Source: a virus. From it: a stretch of 64,000 nt of DNA. Position 1 is the first letter of the stretch; every line of letters starts with the position of its first letter. This document shows, in pieces, positions 780 through 61,230 of the stretch. Both the position numbers and the translations under genes were made by a program. A model generated the notes under the pieces. That model saw only the letters and a program-made list of their open reading frames with translations. It had not been told where the DNA came from and ran no database searches. Location: positions 116,491 to 180,490 of the IMG/VR virus record IMGVR_UViG_3300024312_000003, one strand, 5' to 3'.

Positions 780-899
780 GCATTCCTGCTCTTTCCTCAA
801 TCAAAGAATTTAACTGTCTTTTTCAAATCCATTACAGATTTGATACTCATCAATTAAATCGGCAGGAATATCAGATTCAATAGGTTCGGATCATTATCA

Positions 900-1207
900 C
901 CTACTTGTTATTAAACCTGATAACTAGGTTTTGCTCAAGCGGCCAGGCGCTGAGCAAACGTGCTGTCGTTTGCGGCAGTTAAATTGAGATTTGTATGTTT
1001 CGATTGATTTCTCAATCTCTAACGGAGTTCTCATACTTACTCCGAGTAGTAATCTCCACTAGCTCACCCTGTCGAAACCAGATCTGGCCCACCTAAACAA
1101 ACACAATATTGAATCTGCTTAGGTGGACCAGGTGGGAATCGAACCCACGTCCAGAATGCATTTGCTTTGATTTTCAGTTTCGGTATTTCTACCTCTACAC
1201 ACTACCA
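900..1207 (-). ncRNA. ssrA: circularly permuted (two-piece) tmRNA
   Basis: Read on the minus strand, the 3' part of a tmRNA comes first: T-arm GTGGG-TTCGATT-CCCAC, then acceptor strand CUGGUCC and A-CC, ending at 1122. A 31-nt spacer (1091-1121) follows. Then comes the usual 5' end, GGGCCAGATCTGGTTTCGAC, from 1090. The two acceptor strands pair over 7 bp and keep the G3-U70 wobble that marks alanine tmRNA. A tag frame at 976-935 reads AANDSTFAQRLAA and then TGA. It begins like the standard AAND tags and ends in LAA. A stem GCUCAGCG/CGCUUGAGC (H5) spans the end of the tag, and a pseudoknot (AACCU/AGGUU with GUUAU/AUAAC) lies at 907-930. GGTAGT near 1205 can pair with ACTACT of the 5' piece (H2). 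The CCA is only partly encoded (ACC then T). Outer ends are approximate. It would rescue stalled ribosomes and tag their products for proteolysis. Confidence 0.9.
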
Positions 1208-1208
1208 T

Positions 1209-1706
1209 TTATACTTCAGTCCAAGTTCTGCCATTTCTAATATCAGAAACAGTTGATTTGGATATGTTGTATTTATCAACATAGTAACTGTATGGTTCTT
1301 TTCCGTATTTGATGTTACTAACCTGCTCTATTGTCAAATGCGAATTATTTCTAACATTAATACCTTTAGCAGATCGACCTTTATTTACCATATCATCCAT
1401 ATTGTCTTGATGAGTGCCTGCAAATAAATGATCAGGAGCAACACATTTACGATTATCACAATGATGACAAATCATAATACTGGGGTCAAGAATCTGACCA
1501 CCAATAAATAATTGAAAAGCCCATCTATGAGCGCGTATTTTAGACTGTTCCTCTCTAGATCCAACTGATATCTGACCGTATCCATCTTGATTGAGTTTAC
1601 CTGTCCACTCTATACAATCATTATTTGGATTAAGTTGAAGTTTGTCTATAAAACGTTTTAAGACTTTTTCATCAAATACGATATCTGGATCTAGAGAATT
1701 TGACAT
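1209..1706 (-). CDS. HNH homing endonuclease
   Basis: The protein (165 aa from the ATG at 1706; a GTG at 1742 is in frame) has an HNH_3-type layout. An N-terminal part contains WTGKLNQDGYGQI and AHRWAFQLFIG. The core HHCDNRKCVAPDHLF follows, with paired Cys and His residues, then GTHQDNMDDMVNKGR. The C-terminus (LTIEQVSNIK to SKSTVSDIRNGRTW) looks like a helix-turn-helix DNA-binding motif of the kind found in phage homing endonucleases. The stop codon falls directly before the first base-paired segment of the tmRNA acceptor piece, so the gene sits at the edge of an RNA gene. It would nick or cut a specific DNA site to spread itself. Confidence 0.85.
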   Translation of the reverse strand: MSNSLDPDIVFDEKVLKRFIDKLQLNPNNDCIEWTGKLNQDGYGQISVGSREEQSKIRAHRWAFQLFIGGQILDPSIMICHHCDNRKCVAPDHLFAGTHQDNMDDMVNKGRSAKGINVRNNSHLTIEQVSNIKYGKEPYSYYVDKYNISKSTVSDIRNGRTWTEV

Positions 1707-12441: not shown

Positions 12442-12655
12442 AAGCTTTTAGATCAATTAGGCTTTCAAGAACACCCATTAATTCTTCATCTTTTGGTTTA
12501 GAATCAAGAAGAGATTCTAAACCAAGAATATGTTTTTTAATTTGATCTTTTATCTGCCACTCAGGAAACCCAGATTTTAGAAGACAAACGTATGGTGATA
12601 GACTTTGACGGGTTTGTAGATTGTCAATTTTTTTAATTTCTAACAGGAGGCTCAT
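12431..12655 (-). CDS. small helical protein, tandem paralogue
   Basis: I chose the ATG at 12655 (74 aa, MSLLLEIKKID) because AGGAAAGAC precedes it; the frame extends upstream to 12682 without support. It shares the LLxxGFPxxxI core with the downstream gene, so the pair arose by duplication. It overlaps the end of the TilS-like gene by 23 bases. Confidence 0.65.
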   Translation of the reverse strand: MSLLLEIKKIDNLQTRQSLSPYVCLLKSGFPEWQIKDQIKKHILGLESLLDSKPKDEELMGVLESLIDLKAYVS

Positions 12656-13268
12656 TGTCTTTCCTATTCTCTTCTTTTTCACGAATCAATCTACAGACAG
12701 TAGTTCTGAGTCCCGGATAACACTCATGAACACTACCCATCAGCTTAATTCGAGTTTTATTTCTCAATCCAGAATTTGGATCACTGTTACTGGGATCACT
12801 CAGATGCTCAAGATTTCTGTTCTGAGCATATTCGTAAATCTTTGATTTTGGAGTGCAAATCAGCGGGCGAATAACGTTGTTATTTTGATATTCCAGAATT
12901 TTAGGAGTACCTTGGAAAGTACTCATGATGTACCATTCGACAGCATCATCAAGATGGTGACCTGTGAGTACCATCCTGTCCATGGCTTGAAAGATCTTGT
13001 ATCTTTCACGACTCCAATAAGCTTCCTTTGAACCCGGTCCTTTGAATGCTTCGATTTGTTTAACAAGCAATTCAATACCTAGTTCCTTAGAAAGATTTTC
13101 AGCAAACAACTGTTCCTCATCGCAGAAATTGCCCCTGTGATGAATAAACAACAACTTAACGTCTACTTTTCTCTTTACTAGCAAATGAAGCAATACAGCA
13201 GAATCCACACCTCCAGAGAAAGCCAGGTACACTGGTGTATTGATTCGCTTAAAGAAACTAATTTTCAT
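12633..13268 (-). CDS. tilS-like: TilS-like PP-loop ATPase
   Basis: 211 residues from the ATG at 13268. The PP-loop AFSGGVDSAVLLHLL lies near residue 15, followed by FIHHRGNF, then LTGHHLDDAVEWYIM (the HxxDD motif of tRNA lysidine synthases) and RPLI near residue 135. It is about the length of the N-terminal catalytic domain only, lacking the C-terminal domains of full TilS. TilS converts the CAU-anticodon tRNA to an isoleucine tRNA. A tRNA with anticodon CAT lies 2.6 kb away at 15863, so a functional pair is possible but not shown. Confidence 0.8.
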   Translation of the reverse strand: MKISFFKRINTPVYLAFSGGVDSAVLLHLLVKRKVDVKLLFIHHRGNFCDEEQLFAENLSKELGIELLVKQIEAFKGPGSKEAYWSRERYKIFQAMDRMVLTGHHLDDAVEWYIMSTFQGTPKILEYQNNNVIRPLICTPKSKIYEYAQNRNLEHLSDPSNSDPNSGLRNKTRIKLMGSVHECYPGLRTTVCRLIREKEENRKDNEPPVRN

Positions 13269-13314
13269 TTTACAATTATTGTTTATCAATTAGAACAAAC
13301 TCAAGTCTTTGAAA

Positions 13315-15058: not shown

Positions 15059-15093
15059 TGGTGCCGGTTGACAGTCTCGAACTGCCGACCTAT
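15059..15093 (-). pseudogene. 3' half of a tRNA gene
   Basis: GGTCGGCAG-TTCGAGA-CTGTC forms a T-arm, followed by AACCGGC-A-CCA. The acceptor strand is the exact complement of GCCGGTT at 15810-15804, about 740 bases away. The 5' side runs into the end of the HNH gene, whose stop codon falls inside it. No anticodon arm is present here, so it is either a remnant or one part of a split gene. Confidence 0.7.
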
Positions 15094-15662
15094 TCAATAA
15101 TTATTGGTTTCACCCAATAACCCCTTGGCGGTTTTTCTATTGAATATATTTTACACCATTTTTCAATTGTCTTATCGGAAACACCATAATCCTTAGAAAT
15201 ATGGGTAGTGGGTTTCGACCAGACTAACTTCTCAAGAGTCTCTTTAGAAGGTCTATCTTTAACTATCCGTGCTCCAATTTTTGAACAGTTTGCTGAGCAA
15301 TATTTAAATTCAGGATAAATAGGGTATTCGCAAACGATACACCGTATACACCCCAATTTAATTCTTTCAGAAAATTCTTTGTTTGGTTCAAAAGAATATT
15401 TATTCATCCAACCATGCAGTTTAGCATGCATTGGATTTGAAAGAATCAACAAATTGTCAGGAGAATTATTTTGTCTATTTTGATCCAGATGATGAACTAC
15501 TTCTCCTTCTAGAAGCGATCTTCCCATCAGATTCTCAGCAACAACAATATGTTCGTAAACATATCCTTCGTAAGATCCCGAAGCTATAGCTCTCGGATGA
15601 TATGGCATCTTGACCAAAACATATCCGTTGGTATCAATTGTTCGTCTAAAAAGTTTGTACAT
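15090..15662 (-). CDS. HNH endonuclease inserted between tRNA halves
   Basis: 190 residues from the ATG at 15662, just after the CCA of tRNA-Thr. Key features are an AVxENLMGRSLLEGE-type start, the core VVHHLDQNRQNNSPDNLLIL with conserved His and Asn, and HAKLHGW. A possible zinc cluster (CIRCIVCEYPIYPEFKYCSA) and a C-terminal helix-turn-helix (HISKDYGVSDKTIEKWCKIY) follow. This is the usual make-up of phage HNH homing enzymes. The gene ends inside the tRNA 3' half, so its insertion probably disrupted that tRNA. Confidence 0.85.
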   Translation of the reverse strand: MYKLFRRTIDTNGYVLVKMPYHPRAIASGSYEGYVYEHIVVAENLMGRSLLEGEVVHHLDQNRQNNSPDNLLILSNPMHAKLHGWMNKYSFEPNKEFSERIKLGCIRCIVCEYPIYPEFKYCSANCSKIGARIVKDRPSKETLEKLVWSKPTTHISKDYGVSDKTIEKWCKIYSIEKPPRGYWVKPIIIE

Positions 15663-15675
15663 GATTTTGATTGGA

Positions 15676-15750
15676 TGGTGCCCTGTCTGTGAATCGAACA
15701 CAGATCGCCGCCTTACAAGGGCGGTGCTAAGACCTTCCAGCTAACAGGGC
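15676..15750 (-). tRNA. tRNA-Thr (TGT)
   Basis: Acceptor GCCCTGT/ACAGGGC, anticodon stem CCGCC-CTTGTAA-GGCGG, T-arm CTGTG-TTCGATT-CACAG, encoded A-CCA. The anticodon is TGT. It is complete although it lies between two halves of another tRNA. Confidence 0.93.
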
Positions 15751-15770
15751 ACTATGAAACAGAAACAAAT

Positions 15771-15810
15771 ACAGATTTAGAAAGAACTCTACCAACTGAG
15801 CTAAACCGGC
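15771..15810 (-). pseudogene. 5' half of a tRNA gene
   Basis: GCCGGTT-TA-GCTC-AGTTGGTA-GAGT is a standard acceptor strand and D-arm. After it the sequence becomes AT-rich and no anticodon stem or T-arm follows before tRNA-Thr. Its acceptor strand pairs perfectly with the half-gene ending at 15059. The amino acid cannot be assigned. Confidence 0.7.
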
Positions 15811-15862: not shown

Positions 15863-15939
<77 letters not shown>

Positions 15940-16057: not shown

Positions 16058-16546
16058 TTACAACTCTGTTTTAAATCCGTACTTAACAATGGACTCAATC
16101 AGATATTGACTTGAGTCTGGTTCAAAATACATGTTCTTTCTATCAAAGATTAAACACTGATTAGAACCTCTATCGTGAGCGACTAAATCTAGAAACAAAA
16201 ATACATCCTCACCATTTGAGGTAAGAATCCATTTCATGTCATCATGTTTATTTGTCTTGTCGCGAATGAGTCCAGTAATGGGTCTTTCTCTTAGTTTCCT
16301 ACAGTAATTCTTATAAATTACCAAACTGACACAATGATTTTCAAGATAATCAGATGCCACCTGACCAGCATTGTTATAAATCTTGTTGTAAGATATACTG
16401 TTTGCGTTTAACTTATTCCAAATATGATTAAACGCAACTCTGCTCATTTCTTTCAAAAGTGTTCTGACTGAGTCAGTTCTCTCGATGCTTCTTAGAAAAA
16501 GAAGATATTGTCGAAGCGTAACGTCTTGGTAATTTTGAACAATCAT
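16058..16546 (-). CDS. hypothetical protein, 162 aa
   Basis: A soluble protein that begins MIVQNYQDVTLRQYLLFLRS; Asn-rich in the middle, with LTSNGEDVFLFLDLVAHDRG later on. It starts one base before the stop of the upstream gene, suggesting co-expression. Function unknown. Confidence 0.65.
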   Translation of the reverse strand: MIVQNYQDVTLRQYLLFLRSIERTDSVRTLLKEMSRVAFNHIWNKLNANSISYNKIYNNAGQVASDYLENHCVSLVIYKNYCRKLRERPITGLIRDKTNKHDDMKWILTSNGEDVFLFLDLVAHDRGSNQCLIFDRKNMYFEPDSSQYLIESIVKYGFKTEL

Positions 16547-38118: not shown

Positions 38119-39706
38119 TCAAACCGCCGCAGCCGGAAACTTAATCGCTGGATGAGATTCGTAATTTTCAATCTTGATATCTTCGATTTTAAAATCTTCG
38201 ATATTTTTGATATCCGGGTTAAGAACCAATGTTGGCAGAGGCTTAGGCTCTCTCTCAACTTGTTCGACAATAAGATCAATTTGATTTTTGTAGATGTGGG
38301 TATTTCCACCCGTCCAAATAAAATCACCAACTTTCGTATTAGTGACCTGAGCAACCATATGCGTGAGAATAGCATAACTTGCAATGTTAAAAGGAACGCC
38401 CAAAGGAACGTCGGCTGATGTTGAGTTCAATATGGTTCGTTAATCCATACCCGCACCATGACGTGCAGCTGCATGTTTCCATGCATGACCAGACTATATC
38501 ATCTTTCCTATTTGGAAAGCTTTCTGTTTCGAACCACTTGGTTCTACTCTACTTACTTCCAGCGTTTGCTGTGTTTTCGATAGTCGTTGAACGTGCCTCC
38601 AATCATTGGAGGATTCGCTGCTGGTTGTCCAATCCATCTCGTTTTCAAACCATGGCTTTGCTTTGCAGCTCGCAGTGGTGAAATGGCTCTAAGGAGTTTC
38701 TAGCAATTAAGAAAGTTTTCTAATGAGATTACTCTCAAAAGGCGCTCAGTAATTAACGCTGATACAGAAGGCATGAAAGTCTACCACTAGGAATTCCAAT
38801 TTCCTTAGCAATCTTAGCAGCGATTTTGAAACCACTCTCTCCAGATTCTACAGCTTGAGTAATTTCGATTATTCGAGACTCATGACCAGCAGTAATGATA
38901 TCTGCGGTGATTTCTTCCAAAGGAATTGGTTCCACGTCAAACTGGAACAAGCAATGACATGCTGCCAAAGCCATTTTACCTTGAATAACATTATCTTGAG
39001 GACTAATGGTTTCGTCAGGCAGATCGGCAGGATTCCAGGCAGTAACAATGATGCGTCTAGAATAAGGACGATTCTTAATCGTATCAATTGCTTCTTGAAG
39101 CTGATCGATAACTAGACCTGATGGAGTTTTCCAATTGCGCCATTGTGCACCATATACTGGACCGAGATCACCGGATTTAGCAATCGTATATTCAACAAAT
39201 GGATTAACACCACCGTCAAGTAGAAACTTCATGGTTCCTTTAGTAAAACCATTCTTAAGTCCATCTTGCATGTATTCGTTTACTTTGGTACGAATAACAT
39301 CTAGTGGTTCTCCGATATTGTAAATACCAGATTCGATATCTGCTTTTTTCAGATAACCAATTACCTGTTCCTCATGCAGATTATGAGCTTTAGAATATTC
39401 TGAGATCAATTCATTAAAAGGACGAATTCTTTTAATGACAGCGTCTTCTTTAAGAGCCCAGCTGTCCCAGATGTGTACGTCTTTTTCAAGAAGATAATTG
39501 ATGTTGGTATCACCTTTGATGAACCAAATCAGCTCTTCAATGATTCCTCTGGTAAATACCTTCTTAGTCGTCAAAAGAGGAAAACCTTCTCGGAGATTAA
39601 AACGCATCATTGCACCAAAAATAGCAATCGTTCCAGTGTTGGTTCGATCGTCTCTCTCAGTGCCGTTTTCCAAAATATTCTTAACAAGATCTGTGTATTG
39701 TTTCAT
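38119..39706 (-). CDS. thyA: thymidylate synthase, interrupted by a group I intron
   Basis: Exon 1 (39706-38756) runs from MKQYTDLVKNILENGTERDD through PLLTTKKVFTRGI, GDLGPVYGAQWRNW, SRRIIVTAWNPADLP and the active-site Cys segment ALAACHCLFQFDV, to LSCLLYQR. A stop follows at once. Exon 2 resumes after 38428 with SADVPLGVPFNIASYAILTH, THIYKNQI and ESHPAIKFPAA. The break falls in the phosphate-binding QRS motif that every ThyA needs, so the two parts must be joined. The spliced protein would be about 416 to 419 residues, much longer than the 264 of E. coli, with extra segments after WDSWALKED and between FQFDVEPI and IPSGRLSC. It makes dTMP from dUMP. Confidence 0.93.
38428..38755 (-). ncRNA. 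group I self-splicing intron in thyA
   Basis: About 328 bases with no open frame. The core is visible on the minus strand: a Q-like segment GACAACCAGCAGCG (38629-38611 region), a P6-type hairpin CCTCCAATGATTGGAGG, the R element GTTCAACGACTA (38592-38581) and S element AAGATGATATAGTCT (38505-38491), whose GACTAT/ATAGTC form P7. P1 forms between exon GCGU and intron AGCGC, with the splice-site U paired to G. The 5' site is therefore after CGT at 38756. The 3' site is less sure: after the G at 38428 (adds three residues), or before TCAGCC at 38418 (gives consensus QRSADV, and TCAG pairs with CTGA for P10, but leaves no terminal G). Confidence 0.92.
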
Positions 39707-60120: not shown

Positions 60121-61230
60121 TTAGAGAGCCAGGGACTTGCCTTCACGGAAGGCATTGAGAATCGCCATGATGTCGGTGCCGCCATCTTTACCAGAAGATT
60201 TAAGTTCACGAGCACCAACTGTTGTTGCTTCAGGAATACCACGGAAGTAGAACGTTACTCTATCCCATTCTTGGTCAACAACAGCCAATATCATCAGATA
60301 CGTTTCTTCAAACAGTTTCTGACGTATTTGATACTTATTGAGCGAACCCATTAAAGCATCTTCCATCTTTCTGGCTGTAGCTGTAGAAACAACGCACAGA
60401 TTAGACGCACTACCAACAGAAGGTTGACCGCTCAAAATAGAAGCAACGGCATTCTTTGTTCTGCGAGCAAGTATGTGCTGATAAACACCAGACTTGTCTT
60501 GTACCAAGTTCTTCTTATGTGCGTCAATCAAATCCTGACAGAGGATAAGGTCTCGAACAAATTCAAGACGACCGGATCTCCATCCGTGCCATCTCTCCAT
60601 GAAAGAAGTATCTTTTCTACTGGCGGAGGTAAGAATATGAGCCAGGTTCTCTGAAGGAATCGTGTTAGCCATCAATCTGATTGAGATTGGAATGCTGGCT
60701 TTTCTCTCACCCTCTTGGAACTCAACATTTACAATTTTACCAACAGCCAGATTGGCTGCTTCCGTAATTGTTTTAGCCGGATCCTTAATGGACGAATAAG
60801 TTGATTTCTTATCGGGATCAATTATATACTTGGCGTCTTCAATTGCTTCCATTGCAAAGCTAGGAAGTTTGAAACTATATGAGGCGCTTTCAGCACCAAT
60901 TCCAAATCTTGTCAGGTCACCGACTGGTAGTTCATCCACACCGATGCGGTTTGGATTGAGTTTATCCAAATGACCGACAACATTGATTGATCCTATGTTG
61001 ATAGATAAGCTAAAAGCTTGCAAATAGTAAGCTGTGAACATCGATAGCAGTGTCTGCATCGTGTCCGGCAAAATAGGAGAATATAAAACCTCCGAGTCAA
61101 TCAGAGTAATTGGCTCAACTCTAGCAGGCTTAGTGTATGAAATATACGAATCAGCTGCGCGTTCTGACTGGAGTCTATTAATAACTTTGGACAAACTAGT
61201 TAGTCCAGCTTCAACGGTCGTGTCTAGCAT
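60121..61230 (-). CDS. virion structural protein, 369 aa
   Basis: Starts MLDTTVEAGLTSLSKVINRL. A mixed fold with GKIVNVEFQEGERKASIPIS and a helical middle. First minus-strand gene of the structural run; it faces the plus-strand gene at 61260 with 29 bases between the starts. Confidence 0.62.
   Translation of the reverse strand: MLDTTVEAGLTSLSKVINRLQSERAADSYISYTKPARVEPITLIDSEVLYSPILPDTMQTLLSMFTAYYLQAFSLSINIGSINVVGHLDKLNPNRIGVDELPVGDLTRFGIGAESASYSFKLPSFAMEAIEDAKYIIDPDKKSTYSSIKDPAKTITEAANLAVGKIVNVEFQEGERKASIPISIRLMANTIPSENLAHILTSASRKDTSFMERWHGWRSGRLEFVRDLILCQDLIDAHKKNLVQDKSGVYQHILARRTKNAVASILSGQPSVGSASNLCVVSTATARKMEDALMGSLNKYQIRQKLFEETYLMILAVVDQEWDRVTFYFRGIPEATTVGARELKSSGKDGGTDIMAILNAFREGKSLAL

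What the first reader, a model, noticed from the sequence alone, without database searches (positions are those of the whole stretch)
15059..15810. Two complementary tRNA halves separated by an intact tRNA-Thr and an HNH gene
GCCGGTT (5' half, with D-arm) and AACCGGC-ACCA (3' half, with T-arm) pair perfectly but lie about 740 bases apart, each lacking the anticodon arm. The HNH gene ends inside the 3' half. The likeliest story is disruption of one tRNA gene by a homing element plus rearrangement; a split, trans-joined tRNA is a remote alternative.
Basis: partly seen in the sequence, partly recalled or inferred. Interest (0 to 1): 0.65.

Follow-up and report, generated by a model that had tools for sequence, protein, structure and literature searches.

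The report
tRNA gene split by tRNA-plus-nuclease cassette
In a large phiKZ-like virus of bacteria, a selfish DNA-cutting (HNH) gene has landed inside a threonine tRNA gene and brought a second, intact threonine tRNA gene with it; phiKZ and its relatives show the same trick with asparagine tRNA, and close relatives still carry the unbroken gene.

Summary
On the minus strand lie a 24-nt tRNA 5' half (15810-15787), an intact tRNA-Thr(TGT), an HNH endonuclease gene and a 34-nt tRNA 3' half (15092-15059). The HNH stop codon TAG is nt 43-45 of the 3' half. The halves form a perfect 7-bp acceptor and, joined, match phage tRNA-Thr genes, so they come from one broken tRNA-Thr gene.

The closest evidence is elsewhere. 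phiKZ, PA1C and relatives have the same order: tRNA-Asn 5' half, intact tRNA-Asn(GTT) of different sequence, HNH relative, 3' half. Sister phages (SL2, Churi and others; about 24 records) carry the intact tRNA-Asn at that locus, which shows the event to be an insertion between nt 37 and 38. A third case (L134) splits tRNA-Asn with HNH plus tRNA-Asn. In all three the cargo tRNA has the isotype of the tRNA it broke.

Best explanation: an HNH homing cassette that inserts into tRNA anticodon arms and carries a replacement isoacceptor; the halves are debris. A trans-joined tRNA is excluded here (no anticodon arm). Homing itself is inferred. I found no published description. New variant of a known kind.

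The parts
15787..15810 (-). 5' half of the broken resident tRNA-Thr gene (nt 1-24: acceptor 5' strand, D-arm)
   Evidence: sequence; 24/24 identical to the same part of intact tRNA-Thr(TGT) of Variovorax phage V45v66 and Stenotrophomonas phage RAS14
15093..15786 (-). inserted cassette, 694 nt, in place of nt 25-42 (the anticodon arm)
   Evidence: sequence; by analogy with the empty and filled tRNA-Asn alleles of phiKZ-group phages
15676..15750 (-). cargo: intact tRNA-Thr(TGT), the only tRNA-Thr in the 180-kb record
   Evidence: ARAGORN; Rfam; tRNA list of the record
15090..15662 (-). HNH endonuclease, 190 aa: HNH_3 domain, cysteine-rich (zinc-ribbon-like) stretch and C-terminal helix-turn-helix-like domain; stop codon TAG supplied by tRNA nt 43-45
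   Evidence: motif residues invariant in alignment A1
15059..15092 (-). 3' half of the broken resident tRNA-Thr gene (nt 43-76: variable loop, T-arm, acceptor 3' strand, ACCA)
   Evidence: sequence; joined-half search

Best explanation
A phage tRNA-Thr gene was interrupted in its anticodon arm by a two-gene cassette: a complete, very different tRNA-Thr(TGT) followed by an HNH homing endonuclease. The flanking halves are remnants of the interrupted gene; the cargo tRNA supplies the lost isotype. Likely working (inferred): the HNH protein, through its zinc-ribbon/HTH domain, recognises intact tRNA genes around the anticodon loop of co-infecting phages and nicks or cuts them; repair copies the cassette in; the cargo tRNA differs from the target and so is spared, and it keeps the invaded phage supplied with that tRNA. 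Shown: the anatomy, the single-gene origin of the halves, the same architecture in phiKZ-group phages, the empty alleles there, and same-isotype cargo in three cases. Inferred: cleavage, target site, mobility by homing, and charging of the cargo.
For: (1) The halves pair perfectly and jointly match tRNA-Thr genes in register. (2) phiKZ, Brmt, 6B, 124.01, PA1C, phiHQ, phiLBG22, BRkr: tRNA-Asn 5' half - intact tRNA-Asn(GTT), 87 nt - HNH relative (about 43-44% identical to the window's) - 3' half. (3) Empty alleles at the same locus with the intact 76-nt tRNA-Asn: SL2, Churi, PA02, 30-1 read directly; about 24 records hold the uninterrupted 251-bp stretch against 14 filled ones. Insert 774 nt, exactly between A37 and A38. 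(4) L134, the closest HNH relative (50%): tRNA-Asn 5' half - HNH - tRNA-Asn(GTT) - 3' half; resident called Asn. (5) L038 (tRNA-Lys) and L054 (tRNA-Pro, here a PD-(D/E)XK nuclease with the same C-terminal domain): insertions in the anticodon loop without cargo, and no other Lys or Pro tRNA found in those records. (6) PA1C's only tRNA-Asn, and the window record's only tRNA-Thr, is the cargo. (7) T2P: 5' half plus cargo at the second tRNA-Asn locus, without HNH or 3' half, where fnug has the intact gene. (8) Full-length relatives of the gene mostly lie in tRNA clusters.
Against: No close relative of the window phage with an empty tRNA-Thr site was found. The window insertion is not clean: 18 nt are missing, where the phiKZ one is exact. 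No cleavage or homing was tested. phiKZ has a second tRNA-Asn, so cargo is not always needed. In L257 the resident's isotype is only probable, and in L002 it is unresolved. Cassette and flanks diverge about equally between phiKZ and PA1C (82% and 76% DNA), so recent transfer between these two is not shown.
Confidence: 0.8

Rival explanations
1. Remnants of two different tRNA genes: ordinary erosion of a tRNA cluster left a 5' piece and a 3' piece whose acceptors match by chance or shared ancestry, with an unrelated HNH gene and tRNA between them.
For: Phage tRNA clusters lose genes often; no empty site is known for this very locus.
Against: Perfect acceptor match and joint match to one isotype; 0/300 shuffles; the same layout in phiKZ-group phages is shown to be an insertion by empty alleles.
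Confidence: 0.1
2. A split tRNA: the halves are transcribed and joined (spliced, or sealed by an RNA ligase) into a working tRNA.
For: Acceptor, D- and T-arms are well kept; T5-A68 in phiKZ is C5-G68 in PA1C, a paired change across the insert; HEG insertions into protein genes can leave function intact (phage Aeh1 nrdA, PMC2988022).
Against: The window halves lack nt 25-42; PA1C-type halves have lost the anticodon and keep only 3 of 5 anticodon-stem pairs; 6B and phiKZ keep 4; phiLBG22 has a broken acceptor pair. No intron core found. The 3' half of 6B differs from phiKZ at 3/33 nt with identical flanks, which points to gene conversion.
Confidence: 0.03
3. A degenerate group I intron with HNH ORF in the tRNA gene, into which a tRNA-Thr later moved.
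For: Relatives of this HNH sit in group I introns in tRNA-CAT genes (L032 by Rfam; L003, L135, L282 by inspection).
Against: No group I match at E<=1 in the window locus or 6B, though Rfam also missed L003. The window insert has only 36+13+0 nt of non-coding DNA besides tRNA and ORF, too little for a ribozyme core.
Confidence: 0.07

Closest known systems
PHIKZ296 and its tRNA-Asn locus (phiKZ, PA1C and relatives); HNH annotated, the split not remarked on as far as I could find
   Same: Order 5' half - same-isotype tRNA - HNH relative - 3' half, in phiKZ-like phages, inside a tRNA cluster downstream of the ribonucleotide reductase genes
   Different: tRNA-Asn instead of tRNA-Thr; insertion exact at 37/38; cargo tRNA has a long variable arm; phiKZ's HNH start is frameshifted
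SegB of T-even phages (GIY-YIG, tRNA gene region; PMC2988022, PMC13096335)
   Same: Homing endonuclease gene in a phage tRNA cluster; drives inheritance or amplification of linked tRNA genes
   Different: SegB lies between tRNA genes (tRNA-Arg/tRNA-Ile), breaks none, other nuclease family
HEG insertions that split phage protein genes (mobE in Aeh1 nrdA; PMC2988022)
   Same: HNH gene inserted into a conserved gene, leaving two pieces
   Different: There both pieces are made and assemble into a working enzyme; here an RNA gene is broken and replaced by a cargo copy
Group I introns with HNH ORF in tRNA genes; PhiPA3 gp210 (PMC11620839) for an intron-borne HNH enzyme in phiKZ-like phages
   Same: Related HNH proteins, anticodon-loop insertion (L003, L032)
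   Different: No ribozyme; the damage is made good by cargo, not by splicing

Membership tests
HNH homing endonuclease (Pfam HNH_3, phrog_15471) | HNH_3 domain with motif histidines and asparagine | tested here: met
   H57, H58, N66, N70, H79, H83 invariant in A1
HNH homing endonuclease (Pfam HNH_3, phrog_15471) | Present/absent alleles at one site in related genomes | tested here: inconclusive
   Met for the phiKZ-group relative; for the window itself no near relative was found
HNH homing endonuclease (Pfam HNH_3, phrog_15471) | Nicks or cuts the uninterrupted site and is copied into it | not testable with these tools
   needs biochemistry and co-infection
Group I intron-borne HEG | Group I ribozyme core around the ORF | tested here: not met
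   no match at E<=1 and too little non-coding sequence; caveat: Rfam missed L003 too
Split / trans-spliced tRNA | The two pieces together hold a complete tRNA | tested here: not met
   nt 25-42 missing from both
SegB-type tRNA-locus HEG | GIY-YIG domain, intergenic position | tested here: not met
   HNH_3 only; inside a tRNA gene
Integrase-driven element at a tRNA attachment site | Integrase gene and regenerated tRNA 3' end (direct repeat) | tested here: not met
   insert holds only tRNA-Thr and HNH; the tRNA is not regenerated

The most novel reading that the evidence does not exclude
A class of phage mobile element, 'tRNA-replacing homing cassettes': a nuclease (HNH, or PD-(D/E)XK in L054) with a shared zinc-ribbon/HTH domain targets the anticodon loop of tRNA genes and, in its full form, carries a different-bodied tRNA of the same anticodon, so that it destroys competitors' tRNA genes while its carrier keeps the isotype.
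Probability: 0.5. Interest if true: 0.78.

Novelty: new variant of a known kind. Interest (0 to 1): 0.66.

Why it matters
Phage tRNAs are now seen as weapons against host nucleases, and homing endonucleases as weapons between phages. A cassette that breaks a tRNA gene and replaces it with a differently built tRNA of the same anticodon joins the two, gives a reason for odd, divergent phage tRNAs, and makes a testable system in well-known phages, where filled (PA1C, phiHQ) and empty (SL2, Churi) alleles both exist as isolates. It also warns that tRNA finders miss broken and intron-bearing tRNA genes in phage clusters.

Tried and rejected
Exact patterns for the junction and for the intact tRNA-Thr in IMG/VR and in GTDB genomes: no hits. 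Neighbour proteins 16061-16546 and 60124-61230 as bait for near relatives: none. The window RNR in 12 HNH-bearing contigs: only one match, L030's record. Nucleotide matches to the window locus in phages are to tRNAs. Insert ends as an inverted repeat, a sign of an intron-like helix: not in the window (z -0.6), phiKZ type (z -0.3) or L134 (z -0.3), but strong in L054 (z -5.3). The hairpin TTATTGG-GTGAAA-CCAATAA near the 3' half, at first taken for an anticodon-arm relic, is coding for the C-terminal PPRGYW motif that HNH relatives share. HNH tree: window and L134 pair (82/81), but the split cases are not clustered beyond chance. Solved structures: only a weak HTH match. An assembly artefact is unlikely, since isolate genomes show the same layout.

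Full report
What is there. The window is the last 64 kb of a 180-kb IMG/VR record. Its ribonucleotide reductase is closest to phiKZ-like jumbo phages (60% to PS119XW), which also keep their tRNA genes downstream of that gene. On the minus strand, in order: tRNA-Met(CAT) 15939-15863, tRNA 5' half 15810-15787, tRNA-Thr(TGT) 15750-15676, HNH gene 15662-15090, tRNA 3' half 15092-15059, tRNA-Gly, tRNA-Pro. The halves hold nt 1-24 and 43-76; nt 25-42 are gone. The HNH stop codon is nt 43-45 of the tRNA.

One gene, not two. The acceptors pair 7/7. A query made of both halves and a 19-nt blank matches phage tRNA-Thr genes from end to end; the 5' half is identical to the same part of tRNA-Thr(TGT) of Variovorax phage V45v66 and Stenotrophomonas phage RAS14. 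G1-C72, C2-G71 and A73 agree with a threonine tRNA (own knowledge). A blind search for such pairs gives none in 300 shuffles, and in 1.6 Mb of fetched loci only pairs next to relatives of this HNH gene.

The same thing in phiKZ, with its empty site. tblastn with the HNH protein led to PHIKZ296 and relatives. Reading phiKZ, Brmt, 6B, 124.01, PA1C, phiHQ, BRkr and phiLBG22 shows tRNA-Asn 5' half, an intact tRNA-Asn(GTT) of 87 nt with a long variable arm, the HNH gene, and the tRNA-Asn 3' half. SL2, Churi, PA02 and 30-1 carry at that locus the intact 76-nt tRNA-Asn. The insert is 774 nt and lies exactly between A37 and A38. About 24 records hold the uninterrupted stretch and 14 the insert, duplicates included. 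T2P has 5' half and cargo tRNA, but no HNH and no 3' half, at a second tRNA-Asn locus that is intact in fnug: the cargo has taken over there. Psa21 keeps a worn 5' half, cargo and HNH.

A third case, and cases without cargo. The closest HNH relative (50%) lies on a 3-kb contig binned as Bathyarchaeota, probably a stray phage contig (inference): tRNA-Asn 5' half, HNH, tRNA-Asn(GTT), tRNA-Asn 3' half. Here the HNH precedes the cargo, so the association of cargo and nuclease arose more than once or was reshuffled. L257 has 5' half, tRNA-Met(CAT), HNH, 3' half with a probably CAT-type resident; L002 has HNH and tRNA-Thr between halves of unresolved type. L038 splits tRNA-Lys and L054 tRNA-Pro in the anticodon loop without cargo; no other tRNA of that isotype was found in those records. 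In L054 the nuclease domain is PD-(D/E)XK (PDDEXK_5, E=1e-25) while the zinc-ribbon/HTH domain is that of the HNH proteins, which suggests that this domain does the aiming. Other relatives sit in group I introns in tRNA-CAT genes or free beside tRNAs.

The halves are debris, with a caveat. In the window the anticodon arm is absent. In PA1C, phiHQ, BRkr and phiLBG22 the anticodon is lost and 3 of 5 stem pairs remain; phiKZ and 6B keep 4, Brmt 5; phiLBG22 has broken pair 1-72; every intact allele read in full keeps 5 of 5 and 7 of 7, PaZh_1 (unverified record) having a deletion in the 3' part. But acceptor, D- and T-arms are kept better than the anticodon arm, and pair 5-68 is T-A in phiKZ and C-G in PA1C. 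Gene conversion from intact tRNA genes can explain this: 6B differs from phiKZ at 3 of 33 nt in the 3' half while both flanks are identical over 100-150 nt. A residual role of the halves as RNA ends is not excluded.

How it probably works. Inferred: the HNH protein cuts intact tRNA genes at the anticodon loop in co-infecting phages, repair copies the cassette in, and the cargo, of other sequence, escapes. In PA1C the cargo is the only tRNA-Asn, in the window record the only tRNA-Thr. PhiPA3 gp210 shows that an HNH homing endonuclease can be a weapon among phiKZ-like phages (PMC11620839), and SegB shows selection on HEG-linked tRNA genes (PMC13096335; PMC2988022).

Novelty. Ten full-text searches gave HEGs beside tRNA genes, but nothing on a cassette that breaks a tRNA gene and brings a replacement of the same isotype. 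Only open-licence papers were searched, so absence is not proof.

Noticed in passing
L054 2579-3460; L038 2943-3603: tRNA-Pro and tRNA-Lys genes with both halves complete, anticodon stems included, split by a nuclease ORF that fills nearly the whole insert; the insert ends pair with each other (L054 z -5.3; L038 8-bp perfect ends), like an intron without a known ribozyme.
   Followed up: partly
loci L002, L022, L023, L027, L039, L134, L215, L232, L243, L246, L253, L264, L270, L278: tRNAs next to these nuclease genes often have a long variable arm although their anticodon is Asn, Thr, Gly, His, Pro or Trp: 21 of 83 against 24 of 319 other tRNAs (Fisher p=4e-5; rows not independent).
   Followed up: partly
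L215, L220, L232, L246, L253, L256, L265, L268, L269, L270, L278, L279, L283, L291: Nuclease ORFs with the shared C-terminal domain stop 0-6 nt before a tRNA gene.
   Followed up: no
L032 2787-3790; L282 1977-2978: A tRNA gene split by about 35-nt inverted repeats that enclose a second tRNA-CAT gene, itself interrupted by a group I intron with HNH ORF: a tRNA inside a tRNA.
   Followed up: partly
L290/L291 3355-3503: A small tRNA-like gene (ARAGORN: 'Pyl', CTA) nested between complementary tRNA halves only 125 nt apart, without a nuclease; perhaps an end stage.
   Followed up: no
window 12636-13280: PP-loop ATPase like TilS (PF01171, E=1e-25), in the same cluster as tRNA-CAT at 15863-15939; possible phage lysidine synthetase.
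   Followed up: no
window 844-1213: Permuted tmRNA (RF04321, 76 bits) in a phage genome; L002, another phage with a split tRNA, has one too.
   Followed up: no
window 38469-38765: Group I intron (RF00028, 94 bits).
   Followed up: no
L010 3430-3712; L011 4038-4315: Apparent ORF-less group I introns of about 200 nt in phage tRNA genes, seen by inspection, missed by ARAGORN and not listed by Rfam in L011.
   Followed up: no
phiKZ AF399011 269398-269480 (L017): PHIKZ296 has a frameshift near its start compared with PA1C, so the annotated protein is N-terminally truncated.
   Followed up: partly
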